NCBI GenBank assembly: GCA_040752395.1
Contig: JBFMHD010000160.1
Coordinates: 1-6,374, forward strand
DNA: 6,374 bases
From: JBFMHD01 sp040752395 [NCBI: Candidatus Hydrogenedentota bacterium]
GTDB taxonomy: Bacteria > JBFMHD01
Direction of reading: 5' to 3'
In this document: positions 1-6,132 of the stretch, in pieces
Position numbering within the stretch: position 1 is the stretch's first letter
How the letters are laid out: each line of letters begins with the position of its first letter
Made by a program: the position numbers and the translations under genes
The notes under the pieces: model-generated
Told to the model about the DNA's origin: nothing
Databases searched by the model: none
The model's input: only the letters and a program-made list of their open reading frames with translations

Positions 1-99
1 CAGCCGGCTGGAGCCCGAAGCCCGGAGCCTGAAGCCAACATATCATCTTTAGTTTTTCATATATTGTGTAGAACGCAACCCGCGCTCATGAGTACTCCT
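1..99 (-). repeat. Intergenic direct repeat, copy 1 (99 bp, cut by window edge)
   Basis: Counterpart of the repeat at 5582-5680, differing at positions 21, 27, 62, 63, 73 and 79. It starts exactly at the palindrome centre at the window edge, so the other half of the heptamer array probably lies outside. The first 36 bases are 27/36 G+C, against an AT-rich background. Its heptamers are more regular than those of copy 2 (consensus GRAGCCY on the plus strand). It lies 58 bases downstream of the thiolase stop. Confidence 0.93.
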
Positions 100-109
100 C
101 TGAAAAACA

Positions 110-144
110 TTTTAACTTTAATAATAGCAGATAGAAAGTTAAAA
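110..144 (-). repeat. 10-bp inverted repeat after the thiolase gene
   Basis: TTTTAACTTT (110-119) and AAAGTTAAAA (135-144) are perfect inverted copies separated by a 15-base loop, beginning 14 bases after the thiolase stop. The RNA stem is almost all A-U and has no strict T-run after it, so it is at best a weak terminator or 3'-end stabiliser of the operon transcript. Confidence 0.5.
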
Positions 145-154
145 GTTAAAAGTG
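136..154. repeat. Short AT-rich heptamer tandem repeat
   Basis: AAGTTAA occurs twice in direct tandem (136-142, 143-149) followed by a degenerate third unit, AAGTG. The right arm of the inverted repeat at 110-144 is part of it. The 7-base period equals that of the GC-rich array, although the sequence is unrelated. Confidence 0.55.
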
Positions 155-157
155 AGA

Positions 158-1285
158 TTAGCTCTTACACAATATAGTAACAAAATTACAGGAAGCAAGT
201 CCACCAATACTATGAGCTAATGCTACGTTGACTTTTTCAAGCTGCCTTTTACCTGCTTGTTTTCTCATCTGATATGCGATTTCCACTATCTGGGCAAGCC
301 CACTCGTGCCTACCGGGTGTCCACGTGACTTAAGCCCACCTGAGATGTTCACAGGTAATACACCATTTTTCTCAGTCGCTCCATCTAATGTTTTTTGCCA
401 GGCTGTCCCTTTTTCAAAAAAACCTAAATCCTCAAGACTGATAATCTCAAACGAGGTAAAAGCATCGTGTATCTCAGCAAAATCTATATCAGCTGGTCCC
501 AGTGAAGCCATAGAGAATGCCTGTTTTGCTGCTAAAATTGTAGCTTTAAAAGAGGTAAGTGAATCTCTGTTTCTTAAAGCTATATGGTCGGTGCCGCAAC
601 CTATACCCGCAACATTTATATCGGTTTTTTTAGAGGTAAGAATACAGCAGGCAACACCATCAGAAATAGGACTGCAGTCATACAATCTTAAAGGCTCTGC
701 TACTATCCTTGAGTCGAGGATATCTTTTTCAGTTATTAATTTTCGAAAATGCGCAAAAGAATTATAATACCCATAGCTGTGGTTTTTTATAGCAACCCTC
801 ATTAATGCTTTGTATGGCATTTTATATTCATACATATATCTTTTTGTGACAAGAGCAGCAAGCGATGGCATCGAGGCACCTATTATTCGCTCCTTTTTGT
901 CTATAACCTGAGCAAGTATCGCAGTTATTCGTGGGGTTGGCAAATCAGACATCTTTTCACAAGCAATAACAAGAACATCCTTGAAAAGATCGCTTGCTAC
1001 AGATTGGGTTGCTGTATGAAATGCAGCTGCACCAGCCGAGGATGCTGTATCAACACAAAAAGCCGGCAGCCCTGATTTGCCAATCCAGTCAGCTATTAAT
1101 GGCCCAAGATTACCATCACCTATAAACTGTGCAGGCGCCATACTACCGACAAAAACCGCATCTATCTCATCTAAACTATGCTCTTCTCTCAAACGACTGA
1201 TTGCCGAAATAACGAGTTCATATAAAGATGATTCAAGTTTACCAAACTGGCTCAACGATATACCAGCTATATATACTTTGTTCAT
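158..1285 (-). CDS. Thiolase-like protein (archaeal/SCP2-type acetyl-CoA acetyltransferase family), nucleophile Cys replaced by Ser
   Basis: A 375-residue protein of the thiolase superfamily, whose members join or cleave acyl-CoA units in the cytoplasm. It resembles the archaeal/SCP2-type branch: the His motif EIHDAF lies at residues 271-276 (H273), the glycine-rich SGGLKSRGHPVGTSG at 315-329 carries the expected GHP histidine (H323), and AHSIGG (357-362) matches the branch's C-terminal HNxG-type loop. The nucleophile region reads VDTASSAG (78-85). Where the family has an A-C-A/S-x-G cysteine, this protein has Ser82 (codon TCC, one base from TGC). Length is near the family's usual ~380-400, so it is not truncated. 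It starts in a TAATG overlap with the rpoD stop and has only a weak GGAA upstream, so it is probably translated by coupling to rpoD. The OB-fold (DUF35-type) partner often found beside archaeal thiolases is not in the window. It may be a non-classical or inactive thiolase; the substrate is unknown. Confidence 0.85.
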   Translation of the reverse strand: MNKVYIAGISLSQFGKLESSLYELVISAISRLREEHSLDEIDAVFVGSMAPAQFIGDGNLGPLIADWIGKSGLPAFCVDTASSAGAAAFHTATQSVASDLFKDVLVIACEKMSDLPTPRITAILAQVIDKKERIIGASMPSLAALVTKRYMYEYKMPYKALMRVAIKNHSYGYYNSFAHFRKLITEKDILDSRIVAEPLRLYDCSPISDGVACCILTSKKTDINVAGIGCGTDHIALRNRDSLTSFKATILAAKQAFSMASLGPADIDFAEIHDAFTSFEIISLEDLGFFEKGTAWQKTLDGATEKNGVLPVNISGGLKSRGHPVGTSGLAQIVEIAYQMRKQAGKRQLEKVNVALAHSIGGLASCNFVTILCKS

Positions 1286-3051
1286 TATTCCAAATAGTCG
1301 ATAAGCTTTCTTGCCCGTGTTGGGTGCCGGAGTTTATCAAGCGCTTTTGCCTCTATCTGTCTTATCCGTTCTCTTGTTACATTAAAATATTTACCCACTT
1401 CTTCAAGTGTTCTCGGATACCCGTCTTCTAACCCGAACCTTAATCTTAAAACTCTCTGCTCCCTGTTCGTTAGAGTTGATAAAACTCTTATAAGCTGTTC
1501 AAATAGAAGCTGGTTTGTAGCGATTTTAGCGGGTGAATCAACTTCTTTGTCTTCAATAAAATCAGCGAGATGCGAATCCTCATCTTCACCAATAGGTGTT
1601 TCAAGCGAGATCGGTTCCATGGCTATCTTCATTATTCCACGCACCTTATCAACAGGCCAGTCAAGATTTTTAGCTATTTCCTCTGGTCTCGGTTCTCGTC
1701 CATATTTCTGCACAAGCGCTCTTGTCTCTTTAACAACTTTGTTGATCTGTTCAACCATATGAACAGGTATCCTTATAGTCCGCGCCTGGTCAGCGATCGC
1801 TCTGGTAATAGCCTGACGTATCCACCAGGTAGCATAAGTAGAAAATTTATATCCTCGCCGGTACTCAAATTTTTCAACTGCTTTAATTAAACCCGTGTTG
1901 CCCTCCTGAATTAAATCAAGGAAGGTTAAACCACGGTTTGTATATTTTTTTGCAATAGAAACCACCAACCTTAAATTAGCCTCAACCATTTCTTCACGAG
2001 CAGTATCCATAATCCTTTTGCCTTCACCATACTTCTCAATTGCTTTTTTTAATTCTTCAATACTGATTCCTTCTTTTTCCTCAATCTTCTTTATCTGATA
2101 GTTATAACCATAAAAATAGGTTCTTAATTTTTTTAATTCTGCTTTAGATATATGATGTTTTTTTAACTCCGTATCAAGGAGCGGGTCTTTTCTTCCAAGC
2201 ATATCTATCCATATCTTAATATCCTCTAATTTATAACCGTTTTTAGATTCAATAGCTATTTTTAATTTAAGCGATAAAATATCAGCTTCTTTTAAAACAC
2301 CGTGTATTTTATCAAGAAAATATCGTATTACACCCTGATTAAAATTGAGTTTTTTCATTTCGTTGACAATAGAATTTTTAAATTTTTCCATTTTTTTGAT
2401 TAGAGTCAGATTTCTTGATTTCAAAGAGAACTTTTTTAATTCCAGTGCGGTTTTATTATACAAAGAATAATATCGTTTAACTCTTCTTAAAACAGTTTGC
2501 AGCCTTTTCTGCCAGCGCTTTTCCTCATATGGTTTTAACCTTATTCTACCCTTGATATTTATTAAATCTCTTACTCTTATCCTTTCTTCTTCTAAATTTT
2601 TATTTATTTCACAAGTAACCTCTTCTAAAATCTCTACAGATTTTGGCCATGAAAAGACAGCTTCCTGCATTAACGTTTCGCCTGTTTCAATTTTCTTTGC
2701 GATCTCGACTTCTTCTTCTGCTGTGAGCAGTTCAACCCGGCCTATTTCACGGAGATAAAGTCTTATCGGGTCATCTGTGATGCTCGTGGCTCTTTCAAGT
2801 GCTCGACGTTCTTTTAATAATTTGTCGTGTCTTGCTTCCTTGTGAAGTGATAAAATATCCCTTGAATCAACCTCATCAGCTATCTCTATGCCTTCTTTTG
2901 TAAGTAGCGTGAAAACCATGTCTATCTGGTCAGCGTCAGAAAGGTGTGGCGGTAGGATATCGTTTATCTGGTCATACGTAAGCCTGCCATGCTTTTTACC
3001 AAGTAGTAATAATTTCTTTATTTCTTTTCGGTTTAATAACGCAGTGTTCAT
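1285..3051 (-). CDS. rpoD: RNA polymerase primary sigma factor RpoD (sigma-70)
   Basis: The housekeeping sigma factor, which directs core RNA polymerase to -10/-35 promoters and melts the DNA. All regions of a group 1 sigma are present over 588 residues. Region 1.1 (about 5-62) includes [14 protein letters not shown]. Region 1.2 (about 92-124) has [19 protein letters not shown] long, Lys/Glu-rich non-conserved insert spans about 125-350. Region 2 (about 353-434) has the core-binding [38 protein letters not shown], and the melting/-10 helix around [17 protein letters not shown] (406-422). Region 3 (about 435-510) includes the finger [14 protein letters not shown] (488-501). Region 4 (about 518-588) has the -35 helix-turn-helix with [20 protein letters not shown] (548-567). 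The start lies in an ATGA overlap with dnaG and has an AGAGG Shine-Dalgarno seven bases upstream. Intact, typical of MMS operons, and expected to recognise the TTGATT/TATACT promoter seen upstream of hinT. Confidence 0.98.
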
Positions 3052-4823
3052 ACTTTTACCTCTTTGGTGTAGGGGTTTATCTCATCTGCCATATTTTTTA
3101 ATAATTCTTTTTTTGATGTTATGAGTTTATCAAACTCTTTTAGTAATAAATCTTTTCTCTTTTCAGTTTTTTCATCTTGAATAAGTTTTTTAATCTCGTT
3201 TATTTTAAAAGCGATCTTTTTCTCAATGATCTTCTTCATTAAATAATATGCGCTTGCAAGCTTGTTTAAATGCTCTTCTTTTTGCATCTCGAGATAACTG
3301 ATTAAACTAACAATTTTTTCATCATCTGTATTATTCATTAGTAAGGCTGTATCAATATAACCCTGATTGTAAAACTGCTCCTGTAACATCTTAAATAGTC
3401 TGCTATACTCTGTTCTTGTAAAAAAGTTTTCGTCCATAAACTTGTTTGTAAATTCAAAAACCTCTCTGTCTCCATAAGTTAAAATTAATAATAATCTGGT
3501 TTCAACGTCATCCTGTAATTCTTTTGTTTCAAGAGTTTTTTCCATTTTCATATCGCCTTCTATATTTCTTAGAAATATATCACTCTCAATATTTAAACGT
3601 TTTGAAAATTCATCTGAATATAAGCGCCTATCAATATGCATCGGAACCCTTTTTAAAATCGGTATAATATTTTTCACTATTTTTATCTTGCCGGAAATAG
3701 ACGCTGTATCGCCTTTTTCACATTCACGCTCGAAGAGAAATTCAAGATAATCTTTAGCGTTCTTTATCAGTTCTTCCATTTTCTCTGCACCGTGCTTTTT
3801 TAAATAATCATCCGGGTCAGATTCACCAGGAATAATAACTATTTTAACTTTGAAATTTTTCGATAACGCTTTGTCTATCCCTCGCTCAGCAGCTGTTTTA
3901 CCCGCACTATCACCATCAAAAAGTAATACCAGTGAATTAACAAGCCGTGCTAATATAGAGAGCTGTGAATCAGTAAGCGCAGTTCCCATAGTTGCCACAC
4001 AATTCTTGAACCCGTATCTCTGCATCGTTATAACATCAGTATACCCTTCAACTATTACCATTTCATTCGAATGTGAAGAAAATTTACGCGCTATATGAAT
4101 ACCATATAGATTCCTGCTCTTGTCAAAAACAAGGTTCGAAGAAGTGTTAATATATTTCGGCGAGTCATTGTCATTAACTATTCTACCTGAAAAACCCACT
4201 ACTTTAGAGGATTCATTTAAGATTGGGAAGATTATCCTGTTTTTGAAAAAATCTTCAAAGGTATTGTCTACTTGCTTGATAATGCCACATTCTATAGCTA
4301 ACTCTCTCTCACTATCGTTAATTAACTTCGTTATATATCTGCTCTCCAGAGGAGCATACCCAATTTTAAATTTCGAGATATCTTCTGTCTTGATCTCTCT
4401 CTCTCTTAATATTTTCATAATTCTGTCACCTGCTTCTCTTAACGCCCTCTGATACATCTCACATACCTTCCCATTTAACTCTAACATTCTTATTCTCTTT
4501 TTGTCTTTTTCACTCAGAGTATAATCTGTGTCACTAATAAATACACCTGCTTCGTTAGCTAATCTTTTCACAGCATCTATAAAAGATATCTTCTCAAAAG
4601 CCATTAAAAAGTGGAAAACATTACCTCCCTTACCACAGCCAAAACAATGAAATATCTTCCTCTCTGGACTTATTATAAAAGAAGGTGTCTTTTCATGATG
4701 AAAAGGACATAGCGCTTTAAAGTTTTTACCGCTCCGCTGTAAAGATATATATCTCGAGATAACATCGACTATGTCAGTTTTATCTCTAATATCATCTATT
4801 AATTCACGGTCAATCCTATTCAT
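3048..4823 (-). CDS. dnaG: DNA primase DnaG
   Basis: Synthesises the RNA primers for Okazaki fragments and leading-strand initiation, working with the replicative helicase. The 591-residue protein has the standard order. The N-terminal zinc-binding domain has ligands C39, H42, C60 and C63 in [11 protein letters not shown] and HCFGCGKGG. The RNA polymerase core follows, including FKNRIIFPI (193-201), VVGFSGR (208-214) and SPKYINTSS (221-229). The TOPRIM catalytic site has EGYTD (E259-D263) and [12 protein letters not shown] (D303 and D305). The C-terminal ~160 residues are charged and helical, as expected for the helicase-binding domain, and are less conserved. Nothing essential is missing. 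It begins two bases after the yqeY stop, with a GAGGGAG element somewhat far upstream (about 14 nt spacing), so coupling to yqeY translation is likely. Its stop overlaps the rpoD start by four bases. Confidence 0.98.
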
Positions 4824-4825
4824 AA

Positions 4826-5269
4826 TTACGAAAGCATCTCCCTCACTAACATTTGAACAAACTTTCCATCAGCACGACCCTTAACCCTGGTTATGACCCC
4901 TTTCATAACCTTCCCAAAATCTTTTATTCCTTCTGCATTAGTCTCTTTTATAACTGCCTTTATACATTCTTTAATCTCATCCTCTGATAAAGGTGATGGA
5001 AGATATGACTCTATAATCTTTTTTTCTGTTTCTTCTTTTTTTGCTAAATCTTCCCTGTTAACTCTTTTATACTCTGAGATAGCTTCGTTTCGCTGCTTTA
5101 GTGCACGATTTAATACGTTTATTTCTTCATCTTCTGTGATCTCCCTTTTTAAAACTATCTCCTCCTGTTTTATAGCATTGATTAAAAGCCGTATAGTTGA
5201 TAACCTCTCTTTCTCTCCTTTTTTTAAACTGATTTTTAAATCTTCATATAGTCTGCCAATTAAACTCAT
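4826..5269 (-). CDS. yqeY: YqeY/GatB-related domain protein
   Basis: A 147-residue, all-helical protein of the YqeY family, related to the C-terminal tRNA-binding domain of the amidotransferase subunit GatB. The molecular role of the stand-alone family is not firmly established; RNA/tRNA binding is inferred from the GatB relation. Family hallmarks are visible: KGEKERLSTIRLLINAIKQEE (17-37), the RNEAISEYKRVNREDLAKKE stretch (60-79), EKKIIESYLPSPLSEDEI (82-99), and the C-terminal DFGKVMKGVITRVKGRADGK (117-136). Length is typical, near 148. It sits between rpsU and dnaG as in many bacterial MMS operons. The gap from rpsU is 42 nt and the local Shine-Dalgarno is weak (GAAGAA just before the start), so expression may be lower than that of rpsU. 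The symbol follows the Bacillus subtilis name. Confidence 0.93.
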   Translation of the reverse strand: MSLIGRLYEDLKISLKKGEKERLSTIRLLINAIKQEEIVLKREITEDEEINVLNRALKQRNEAISEYKRVNREDLAKKEETEKKIIESYLPSPLSEDEIKECIKAVIKETNAEGIKDFGKVMKGVITRVKGRADGKFVQMLVREMLS

Positions 5270-5311
5270 AATTCTTCAAAACCTACCAATTTATCCCCAT
5301 ACCTTAGGATT

Positions 5312-5509
5312 TTAATAACCCCCTCCTCTGTATTTTTTGCTCATTCTTTTTCTTGCTCGCTCACTCTTCTTTTTTCGCTTCACACTCGGCTTCTCATAAT
5401 GCTGCCTCTTTTTAATCTCTGTCATTAATCCAGATTGCTGACAGGATTGCCTGAACCTCTTTAACGCTTTTTCAAAAGACTCGTCTTCTCTTACAATAAT
5501 ATCCGGCAT
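5312..5509 (-). CDS. rpsU: 30S ribosomal protein S21
   Basis: A small, very basic protein of the 30S subunit platform that sits near the 3' end of 16S rRNA and helps start translation. At 65 residues it has the family size. Recognisable parts are the N-terminal IIVREDESFEKALKRFRQ (4-21), the central GLMTEIKKRQHYEKPSVKRK (27-46), and a lysine/arginine-rich tail ending in RGGGY. Upstream is a strong AAGGAGGG Shine-Dalgarno about ten bases from the ATG, which fixes the start. It is the first gene of the MMS block and is separated from the small membrane gene upstream by 157 nt that hold the intergenic repeat and heptamer array, so its leader RNA would be highly structured if transcription comes from the hinT promoter. 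Confidence 0.97.
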   Translation of the reverse strand: MPDIIVREDESFEKALKRFRQSCQQSGLMTEIKKRQHYEKPSVKRKKKSERARKRMSKKYRGGGY

Positions 5510-5555
5510 CCTATACCAACCCTCCTTCGAAAAACGCTGTAACTCTAATAATTCG

Positions 5556-5618
5556 GGGTACAGGCTACGGGCTACGGACTACAGCCGGCTGGAGCCCGAA
5601 GTCCGGAACCTGAAGCCA
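5556..5618. repeat. GC-rich heptamer array with central palindrome
   Basis: Nine consecutive 7-bp units. The left half follows GGCTACG-type units (5556-5583). The centre is AGCCGGCT (5583-5590), a perfect 8-bp palindrome. The right half follows GRAGCCY-type units (5591-5618). Folding at the centre, the 30-base arms 5557-5586 and 5587-5616 are complementary at 22 of 30 positions, and the mismatches recur with the 7-base period. The array lies in the rpsU leader. There is no T-run after it on either strand, so it does not look like an intrinsic terminator. Confidence 0.85.
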
Positions 5619-5680
5619 ACATATCATCTTTAGTTTTTCATACTTTGTGTAGAGCGCAAGCCGCGCTCATGAGTACTCCT
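5582..5680 (-). repeat. Intergenic direct repeat, copy 2 (99 bp)
   Basis: This segment matches positions 1-99 at 93 of 99 bases with no gaps and in the same orientation. Read in the direction of transcription it holds, in order: AGGAG (Shine-Dalgarno-like), the overlapping palindromes GAGTACTC and CTCATGAG, a perfect 6-bp stem GAGCGC-GGCTT-GCGCTC (5668-5652), an A-rich spacer, and a GC-rich run of 7-bp units ending at the palindrome AGCCGGCT. It lies between the small membrane gene and rpsU, overlapping the former by 14 bases. No transposase or target-site duplication is evident. Confidence 0.93.
5652..5668 (-). promoter_or_regulatory. Small GC stem-loop downstream of SD/start module
   Basis: A 6-bp stem, GAGCGC with GCGCTC, and a 5-base loop, beginning inside the ATGA overlap of the small membrane gene. 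In the other repeat copy (71-87) one stem base differs, yet in minus-strand RNA it becomes a U-G wobble and the stem is retained. It could affect translation of the membrane gene's end or the processing of the rpsU leader. Function is inferred only. Confidence 0.45.
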
Positions 5681-5756
5681 TTCGAACATCACGTATAAAC
5701 CAAACTATTGAAACACACCCTGCTACAAGTGTAACAAATGTTATCACCCATTCCAT
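5667..5756 (-). CDS. Small single-pass membrane protein (29 aa), unassigned
   Basis: A 29-codon frame not recognised as a named family. It begins with ATG preceded by AGGGGA five bases upstream, a plausible Shine-Dalgarno. The peptide starts MEWV, has one hydrophobic stretch from about residue 3 to 21 (ITFVTLVAGCVSIVWFI), and ends with the charged tail RDVRKEYS. This is the layout of a single transmembrane helix with a positively charged, probably cytoplasmic, C-terminus. It lies 31 nt after hinT on the same strand, so it is likely co-transcribed. The last four residues (KEYS) and the stop are encoded inside the 99-bp intergenic repeat, and its TGA overlaps the ATG of a ten-codon frame within the repeat. 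A chance frame is possible given its length, but the ribosome site, hydrophobic core and positive tail together favour a real gene. Confidence 0.6.
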   Translation of the reverse strand: MEWVITFVTLVAGCVSIVWFIRDVRKEYS

Positions 5757-5787
5757 AATTATCCCCTATAAAAAATAAGAACTATCT

Positions 5788-6132
5788 CTAACCTGGTGGC
5801 CATGTAAATGTTCGACCACCTAAAAGATGATAGTGTATGTGAAATACTTCCTGACCAGCCCCTTTATTACAATTTAAAACTAATCTCACACCATCCTTTA
5901 TTACCCCATTTTTTATGGCTATCTCTTTAGCGACAATCTGCATTTTACCAAGAACTTCTATATCCTCTTTCTTTGCATACTCTAAACTTGGTATATGTTT
6001 CTTTGGAATAATTAATATATGTAGCGGTGCTTTTGGATTTATATCATTAAAAGCTAAAATATCATCATCTTCATAAACTTTATTAGTAGCTATTTCGTTT
6101 TTTATAATTTTACAAAAAATACAATTATTCAT
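5788..6132 (-). CDS. hinT: HIT family hydrolase, HinT type (purine nucleoside phosphoramidase)
   Basis: A 114-residue histidine-triad protein. Known HinT enzymes are cytoplasmic dimers that hydrolyse AMP-lysine and other adenosine phosphoramidates; the biological substrate is uncertain. The triad HIHYHLLGG (98-106) carries H98, H100 and catalytic H102. The N-terminal CIFCKII (C4 and C7) matches the zinc-type Cys-x-x-Cys of many HIT proteins, and AFNDINPKAPLHILIIPKKHI (27-47) is the nucleotide-binding sheet. The GGRTFTWPPG ending is characteristic of the Hint branch rather than Fhit or GalT. Full length. The Shine-Dalgarno is weak (AGAAAAAGAAA), but a strong promoter lies about 70 bases upstream. 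It is on the same strand as the MMS genes and precedes them without an obvious terminator. Confidence 0.95.
   Translation of the reverse strand: MNNCIFCKIIKNEIATNKVYEDDDILAFNDINPKAPLHILIIPKKHIPSLEYAKKEDIEVLGKMQIVAKEIAIKNGVIKDGVRLVLNCNKGAGQEVFHIHYHLLGGRTFTWPPG

What the first reader, a model, noticed from the sequence alone, without database searches (positions are those of the whole stretch)
1..5680. Near-identical 99-bp direct repeats bracket the rpsU-yqeY-dnaG-rpoD-thiolase block
Positions 1-99 and 5582-5680 agree at 93 of 99 bases in the same orientation, one just upstream of rpsU and the other just after the thiolase. Direct repeats of this length could support duplication or excision of a 5.6-kb unit carrying essential genes, or could mark the block as a module that was moved as a whole. 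More simply, they may be two members of a dispersed intergenic family. The six differences argue against an assembly duplicate.
Basis: partly seen in the sequence, partly recalled or inferred. Interest (0 to 1): 0.6.

Follow-up and report, generated by a model that had tools for sequence, protein, structure and literature searches.

The report
Two copies of a small hairpin repeat
A short non-coding DNA repeat that can fold into hairpins sits at both ends of an ordinary set of essential bacterial genes; it looks like two scattered copies of a small intergenic element rather than the borders of a block that jumps or duplicates.

Summary
In detail: 1-99 and 5582-5680 match at 93 of 99 bases in direct orientation, far beyond chance. 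The length "99" is set by the window: copy 1 is cut off at base 1, inside a palindrome. Copy 2 continues left, probably to 5555, where GGGGTAC can pair with GTACTCC at the repeat's right end. The likely unit is a ~126-bp, non-coding, multi-hairpin element: a hairpin of two opposed arrays of 7-bp units (GGCTWCR), then a 63-bp core. The right flanks of the copies are unrelated, the gene block is a conserved order (a sigma-70 gene follows dnaG in 18 of 20 distant loci), and the longest exact run shared by the copies is 34 bp. I read them as two members of a small dispersed palindromic repeat family, not a moved or excisable module. Copy number could not be counted: no host genome is held, the element was not found in the collections scanned, and full-length RpoD relatives reach only about 50% identity. 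A lead found on the way: in two Omnitrophota-group genomes 11 of 43 heptamer arrays have an inverted partner nearby, and one of them holds dispersed repeat families built on 7-, 8- or 9-bp units.

The parts
1..99 (.). copy 1 of the repeat, cut off on its left by the window start; lies downstream of the thiolase stop
   Evidence: 93 of 99 bases identical to 5582-5680
5555..5680 (.). copy 2, inferred complete element of about 126 bp between the tiny ORF and rpsU
   Evidence: right end fixed by comparison with copy 1; left end inferred only from pairing of GGGGTAC 5555-5561 with GTACTCC 5673-5679, the only such site in the window
5563..5617 (.). hairpin made of two opposed heptamer arrays around AGCCGGCT
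   Evidence: TRF period 7 at 5554-5582; in copy 1 period 7 at 12-36 and 14 at 10-36; fold
5618..5651 (.). A+T-rich part of the core, holding most of the longest exact run shared by the copies (34 bp, copy positions 28-61)
5652..5668 (.). second hairpin GAGCGC-AAGCC-GCGCTC; in copy 1 (71-87) one stem base differs, giving G-U on the minus strand and A-C on the plus strand
5667..5756 (-). tiny ORF of 29 aa with one hydrophobic stretch; its last codons and stop lie inside copy 2
   Evidence: translation; no Pfam family
158..5509 (-). rpsU, yqeY, dnaG, rpoD, thiolase: the block between the copies

Best explanation
The two repeats are two copies of one small, non-coding, palindromic intergenic element of about 126 bp that spreads by copying to gaps between genes. 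It has three parts: a GC-rich hairpin whose two arms are arrays of a 7-bp unit in opposite orientation, an A+T-rich stretch, and a short second hairpin. In copy 2 the outer ends can also pair. Shown: two copies, sharp right boundary, unrelated right flanks, location between genes, fold potential of copy 2 and 7-bp periodicity. Inferred: the left end, spread as a passive (non-autonomous) element by enzymes encoded elsewhere, length change in the arms by replication slippage, and at most a mild effect on neighbouring transcripts through RNA hairpins. That it flanks this operon on both sides is most likely coincidence, since both sites appear to be gaps at the edges of a transcription unit.
For: Repeat and sharp right boundary. 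The plus strand of 5545-5690 folds with z -2.56, 2 of 200 shuffles as stable; the 126-bp element has z -2.81, 4 of 500; as DNA z -2.31, 4 of 200. The only site in the window able to pair with the right terminus by the rule used is GGGGTAC at 5555, 118 bp away. No Rfam family at gathering score. Heptamer arrays at 5554-5582 and in copy 1 at 12-36. Analogues: in G227, a genome of the phylum of G003 (record titled Candidatus Omnitrophota), 50 contigs not chosen for arrays held 63 places of 64-548 bp with at least three distinct partner places, in families of 22, 19, 15, 10 and smaller. The families of 22 and 10 have 7 as their strongest period in 22 of 22 and 10 of 10 members, and members read by eye show opposed arrays around a core. 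In 73 such contigs of G227 and G218, 11 of 43 heptamer arrays have an inverted partner within 120 bp and 4 of 43 a same-orientation one; an unrelated unit reaches this in 2.3% of 430 control tests.
Against: Only two copies are seen and one is incomplete; copy number in the host was not measurable. The element was not found elsewhere: 0 in viral contigs with three patterns, 0 in genome contigs, BLAST hits near chance level in 5 of 237 and 6 of 395 genomes. Minus-strand folds of the whole element are weaker (z -1.60 with flanks; -1.42; as DNA -0.95), and copy 1 alone is unremarkable (RNA z -1.25 and -0.62; DNA 0.35 and 0.49), as is copy 2 without its left arm on the minus strand (RNA z 0.46). 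Two of 50 non-overlapping 126-bp stretches, both coding, have lower z than the stretch at 5545. In G227 the families of 19 and 15 have strongest mean periods of 8 and 9, not 7, and 32 of 43 heptamer arrays have no inverted partner. The window's own arms score 15 of 21 in that test, just under its threshold of 16. No target-site duplication or transposase is established.
Confidence: 0.75

Rival explanations
1. The copies are borders of a mobile or amplifiable module: the 5.6-kb block was moved as a unit, or recombination between the copies duplicates or deletes it.
For: Same orientation, 94% identity, and one copy at each end of the block. No thiolase match at E<=1e-3 was found in the 25 compared loci, so the last gene of the block is unusual there.
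Against: A sigma-70 gene follows dnaG in 18 of 20 distant loci and rpsU lies upstream in 9 of 20, so the core of the block is ordinary gene order. Deletion would remove rpsU, dnaG and rpoD. The longest exact run is 34 bp. No integrase or transposase among the window's ORFs searched.
Confidence: 0.07
2. The repeats are a functional pair specific to this operon, for example matching regulatory RNA elements before and after the rpsU-dnaG-rpoD transcript.
For: One copy upstream and one downstream of the unit; the second hairpin keeps pairing by G-U on the minus strand, the coding strand of the operon, in copy 1; the heptamer hairpin by itself folds better on the minus strand (z -2.89, 4 of 500) than on the plus strand (z -1.92, 25 of 500).
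Against: No Rfam match at gathering score; the only hit at E<=1 in 5500-5800 is a microRNA family far below its cut-off. The whole element folds less well on the minus strand than on the plus strand. No terminator-like site found at either copy.
Confidence: 0.1
3. Artefact: a misassembly that duplicated a stretch of one contig.
For: Copy 1 begins exactly at the window's first base.
Against: Six differences and unrelated right flanks; copy 2 is embedded in a continuous gap between genes.
Confidence: 0.04

Closest known systems
ERIC/IRU elements of enterobacteria
   Same: Similar size (127 bp reported), intergenic, palindromic, 7-bp terminal inverted repeat (PMC2229807, passages read)
   Different: No blastn match at E<=0.01 in 20,395 E. 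coli records; ERIC is predicted to fold as one long stem-loop (PMC2267715, passages read), copy 2 here as several hairpins; arms are heptamer arrays; no TA at the inferred ends
Bacterial MITE-like repeats in general (Correia/NEMIS, RUP, RPE)
   Same: Under 200 bp, non-coding, hairpin-forming, mostly in gene gaps (PMC2229807, passages read)
   Different: Repeat is 51.5% G+C in a 35.4% G+C window, not A+T-rich; TA ends absent; target-site duplication unproven
GTAG-tagged REP sequences
   Same: Palindromic extragenic repeats; GTAG occurs in the heptamer arm on the minus strand
   Different: REPs are 20-40 bp palindromes with an unpaired GTAG motif at one end (PMC3733652, abstract and outline seen); here GTAG is part of the 7-bp units inside the paired arm
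Heptameric simple sequence repeats of bacteria (TAACTGA in Beggiatoaceae, GGGAATC in Xanthomonas, GGGGA(C/T)T in Nostoc)
   Same: 7-bp tandem units, mostly between genes (PMC4679880 and PMC4692102, passages read)
   Different: In the passages read these are direct arrays (TAACTGA: 169 direct sets and one inverted pair); here two arrays face each other as arms of a hairpin inside a longer repeated element

Membership tests
Bacterial MITE as described in PMC2229807 | under 200 bp and encoding no protein | tested here: met
   about 126 bp, left end inferred; no ORF of 50 aa or more lies within copy 2, one 58-codon frame runs through copy 1 off the window's edge
Bacterial MITE as described in PMC2229807 | terminal inverted repeats | tested here: inconclusive
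   GGGGTAC/GTACTCC, 6 Watson-Crick pairs plus one G-T, in copy 2 only; left end of copy 1 lies outside the window
Bacterial MITE as described in PMC2229807 | TA dinucleotide at the ends | tested here: not met
   inferred ends read GGGG and CCT
Bacterial MITE as described in PMC2229807 | A+T-rich | tested here: not met
   51.5% G+C against 35.4% for the window
Bacterial MITE as described in PMC2229807 | target-site duplication | tested here: inconclusive
   TTCG on both sides of copy 2 (5552-5555 and 5681-5684), but its G overlaps the putative terminal repeat, four bases are weak evidence, and there is no second complete copy
ERIC | sequence similarity to enterobacterial copies | tested here: not met
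   no blastn match at E<=0.01 in E. coli genomes
GTAG REP | 20-40 bp palindrome with unpaired GTAG at one end | tested here: not met
   element longer; GTAG units inside a paired arm
Small dispersed intergenic repeat family | several copies at unrelated gene gaps of one genome | tested here: inconclusive
   two copies with unrelated right flanks; genome not held
Heptameric tandem repeat | period of 7 bp | tested here: met
   TRF at the low score limit of 30: 5554-5582 period 7, 4.1 copies, score 37; 12-36 period 7, 3.6 copies, score 36; not reached by the stricter array rule (18 of 21), reached at 16 of 21
Known structured RNA | match to an Rfam family at its gathering score | tested here: not met
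   0 matches in the window

The most novel reading that the evidence does not exclude
The element belongs to a cross-phylum class of small mobile hairpins whose arms are opposed arrays of a family-specific short unit (7 bp here; 7, 8 or 9 bp among the families of G227) around a unique core. Slippage in the arms and copying of the whole hairpin would together explain part of the long-noted excess of heptamer repeats in bacteria and the many dispersed repeat families in genomes such as G227.
Probability: 0.15. Interest if true: 0.6.

Novelty: new member of a known kind. Interest (0 to 1): 0.3.

Why it matters
For the window: it makes the idea of essential genes sitting on a movable cassette unlikely. 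More broadly, opposed heptamer arrays as hairpin arms link two things that the papers I saw describe separately, heptameric simple repeats and small palindromic mobile repeats. If the link is general, the excess of 7-bp repeats in bacterial genomes becomes testable as the signature of one kind of small element.

Tried and rejected
Looked for the element in other collections: no exact match to three short patterns in viral contigs or to a 22-base pattern in genome contigs; no blastn match in plasmids, E. coli or phages. BLAST hits in 5 of 237 and 6 of 395 genomes at E<=0.01 are short and near the number expected by chance (about 2 and 4). The six hits each lie within a stop-free frame of at least 228 codons; of the five hits, two read by eye as coding sequence and the others were not worked out.

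Considered and dropped: descent from an aminotransferase or hydrogenase gene (those two hits, identified by eye only; their E-values are chance level for 237 genomes); the tiny ORF as a known family (no Pfam hit; 0 of 148 genomes, where the tool warns that an empty answer shows nothing); Omnitrophota as the host (RpoD best 385 bits over part of the protein in 193 genomes, against 470 bits full length in the phylum of G001); the window's start inside copy 1 as proof of many copies (in G227, 5 of 98 contig ends lie in repeat places with three or more partners, against 3.0 expected from their share of sequence). Similarity of the window's core to a G227 repeat was seen in one 65.6% alignment, E 0.015, that also spans the heptamers; homology is not claimed.

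Literature: eight searches. In the rows listed, judged by title and start of abstract, no paper describes hairpins with heptamer-array arms; several searches had far more papers than were listed. A 2023 Omnitrophota survey (PMC10066038) has no word beginning with repeat, heptamer, palindrom or intergenic in its main text.

Corrected on recheck: the G227 count counted BLAST hits; one search recounts distinct partner places and adds the unit lengths, which shows that two of the five largest families are period 7, one is period 8 and one period 9.
Full report
Observation. The repeat is real: 1-99 and 5582-5680 agree at 93 of 99 bases in the same orientation. Differences lie at copy positions 21, 27, 62, 63, 73 and 79, and the longest exact run is 34 bp. 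Without the two copies the longest exact repeat in the window is 13 bp, and 100 mononucleotide shuffles never exceed 16 bp. A 29-codon ORF at 5667-5756 ends inside copy 2.

True size. Copy 1 starts at the first base of the window, so 99 bp is a lower limit. The right end is sharp: beyond 99/5680 the next 61 bases match at 17 of 61 places. On the left, copy 2 continues into 7-bp units (TRF period 7 at 5554-5582). The plus-strand fold pairs GGGGTAC 5555-5561 with GTACTCC 5673-5679. A scan of the whole window for a site able to pair at all seven positions with at least six Watson-Crick pairs finds only that one. This was noticed after the fact, so I treat 5555 as a likely, not a proven, left end.

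Anatomy. Inside the outer pairing lie (a) a hairpin at 5563-5617 whose left arm reads GGCTACG GGCTACG GACTACA and whose right arm is the reverse complement of similar units, around AGCCGGCT; (b) an A+T-rich stretch; (c) a hairpin GAGCGC-AAGCC-GCGCTC at 5652-5668. In copy 1 that second hairpin has one stem change, which keeps a G-U pair if the minus strand is read as RNA and gives A-C on the plus strand (sequence). The whole element folds better than shuffles on the plus strand (z -2.56, 2 of 200; z -2.81, 4 of 500; as DNA -2.31, 4 of 200) and less well on the minus strand (z -1.60, 11 of 200; -1.42, 38 of 500; as DNA -0.95, 37 of 200). The heptamer hairpin alone is the other way round: minus z -2.89 (4 of 500), plus -1.92 (25 of 500). 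Results against: copy 1 alone is unremarkable (RNA z -1.25 minus and -0.62 plus; DNA 0.35 and 0.49), copy 2 without its left arm has z 0.46 on the minus strand, and among 50 non-overlapping 126-bp stretches two in dnaG have lower plus-strand z than the stretch at 5545 (60 shuffles each). No terminator-like site is found at either copy, and no Rfam family reaches its gathering score in the window.

The block between the copies. In 20 DnaG loci from distant taxa (L001-L020), a sigma-70 gene matching rpoD lies downstream of dnaG on the same strand in 18; in two of these (L006, L009) it is not that genome's best RpoD match. rpsU lies upstream in 9 of 20. No thiolase match at E<=1e-3 is found in these or in five further RpoD loci, of which L022 repeats the place of L001. 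Some loci are cut by contig ends. The rpsU-dnaG-rpoD order is the well-known macromolecular synthesis operon (recalled; the name also appears in the listing). There is no need for a moved module, and no mobility gene was recognised among the ORFs searched.

Host. No whole genome is held for the window. A DnaG scan of genome contigs found 20 loci, 31-41% identical in the best segment. RpoD matches over most of its length at 40-50% in the phylum of G001, a delta-like MAG (198 genomes; searches drew on the same genomes almost entirely and gave nothing closer). In the phylum of G003 (Omnitrophota) the listed matches cover only the C-terminal part, best 385 bits (193 genomes). So the host seems to be a lineage closer to the delta-like phylum, without a near relative among those sampled; I did not build a tree.

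Copies elsewhere. Exact patterns: 0 in viral contigs and 0 in genome contigs. BLAST of the element: 5 of 237 genomes of the phylum of G003 and 6 of 395 of the phylum of G001 at E<=0.01 per genome, close to the 2 and 4 expected by chance; the aligned pieces are 19-56 bp. No match in plasmids, E. coli or phages. The specific family was thus not seen outside this window.

A wider pattern. Arrays of GGCTWCR units hit 6 viral contigs (a 32-base pattern), and with a 21-base pattern 2 of 345 genomes of the phylum of G001 and 4 of 193 of the phylum of G003. The same pattern read backwards, the control, hit 1 of 345 and 2 of 193. From two genomes picked because they hold several such arrays, G218 and G227, I fetched 80 contig stretches. 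In the 73 stretches not themselves chosen for arrays, period-7 arrays number 32 in 376 kb of G227 and 13 in 155 kb of G218, the highest count of any period from 4 to 14; next in G227 come 14 (23, largely the same arrays by nature), 9 (12) and 8 (11). Twenty loci of other taxa (267 kb) hold 2. After merging overlaps there are 43 arrays: 11 have an inverted partner within 120 bp at 16 of 21 or better (9 of 30 in G227, 2 of 13 in G218), 4 a same-orientation partner, against 2.3% for unrelated units (430 tests) and 0.5% for shuffled flanks (215). So most arrays, 32 of 43, have no inverted partner by this test. The window's own arms score 15 of 21 within copy 2, just under the threshold, and 17 of 21 between copy 2's left unit and copy 1's right arm.

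Dispersed families in G227. In its 50 unselected stretches, 63 places of 64-548 bp have at least three distinct partner places; single-linkage families number 22, 19, 15, 10, 6 and smaller. The families of 22 and 10 have 7 as the strongest of periods 5-9 in 22 of 22 and 10 of 10 members; in the family of 19 the strongest mean period is 8, in that of 15 it is 9, and the family of 6 shows none of them clearly. By eye, members of the two period-7 families are opposed arrays around a core. None was shown to be homologous to the window's element.

Reading. The simplest account is a small dispersed palindromic element with two copies in this window. I do not file it as a MITE, ERIC or REP: A+T richness and TA ends are not met, the E. 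coli search is empty, and the GTAG tag is not free. It may still work like one. The heptamer excess in bacteria is in print (PMC4692102 and PMC6749651, passages read; PMC4679880, passages read), as are small palindromic repeats (PMC2229807 and PMC2267715, passages read; PMC3733652, abstract and outline). In the rows listed by my eight paper searches I saw none joining the two.

Noticed in passing
window 135-153: A second heptamer array, AAAGTTA units, lies just before the thiolase stop on the way to copy 1 (TRF; 124-153 by the relaxed rule).
   Followed up: no
window 5667-5756 (minus): A 29-aa ORF with one hydrophobic stretch between HIT and rpsU has its last codons and stop inside copy 2, so the element may have shortened or changed its end.
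   Followed up: partly
window 158-1285 (minus): A thiolase closest to the PRK06064 model, below its cut-off; its start codon overlaps the rpoD stop codon by one base. No thiolase match in the 25 loci compared.
   Followed up: partly
L062-L141 (G227, G218): Genomes of the Omnitrophota group crowded with heptamer arrays; G227 also with dispersed repeat families built on 7-, 8- or 9-bp units.
   Followed up: partly
L049, L052, L053, each 1501-1521: Heptamer arrays inside long open frames (726, 363 and 582 codons), so such arrays may be carried within genes.
   Followed up: no
window 4033-4158: A coding stretch of dnaG folds far better than shuffles on the plus strand (z -5.2 with 60 shuffles).
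   Followed up: no
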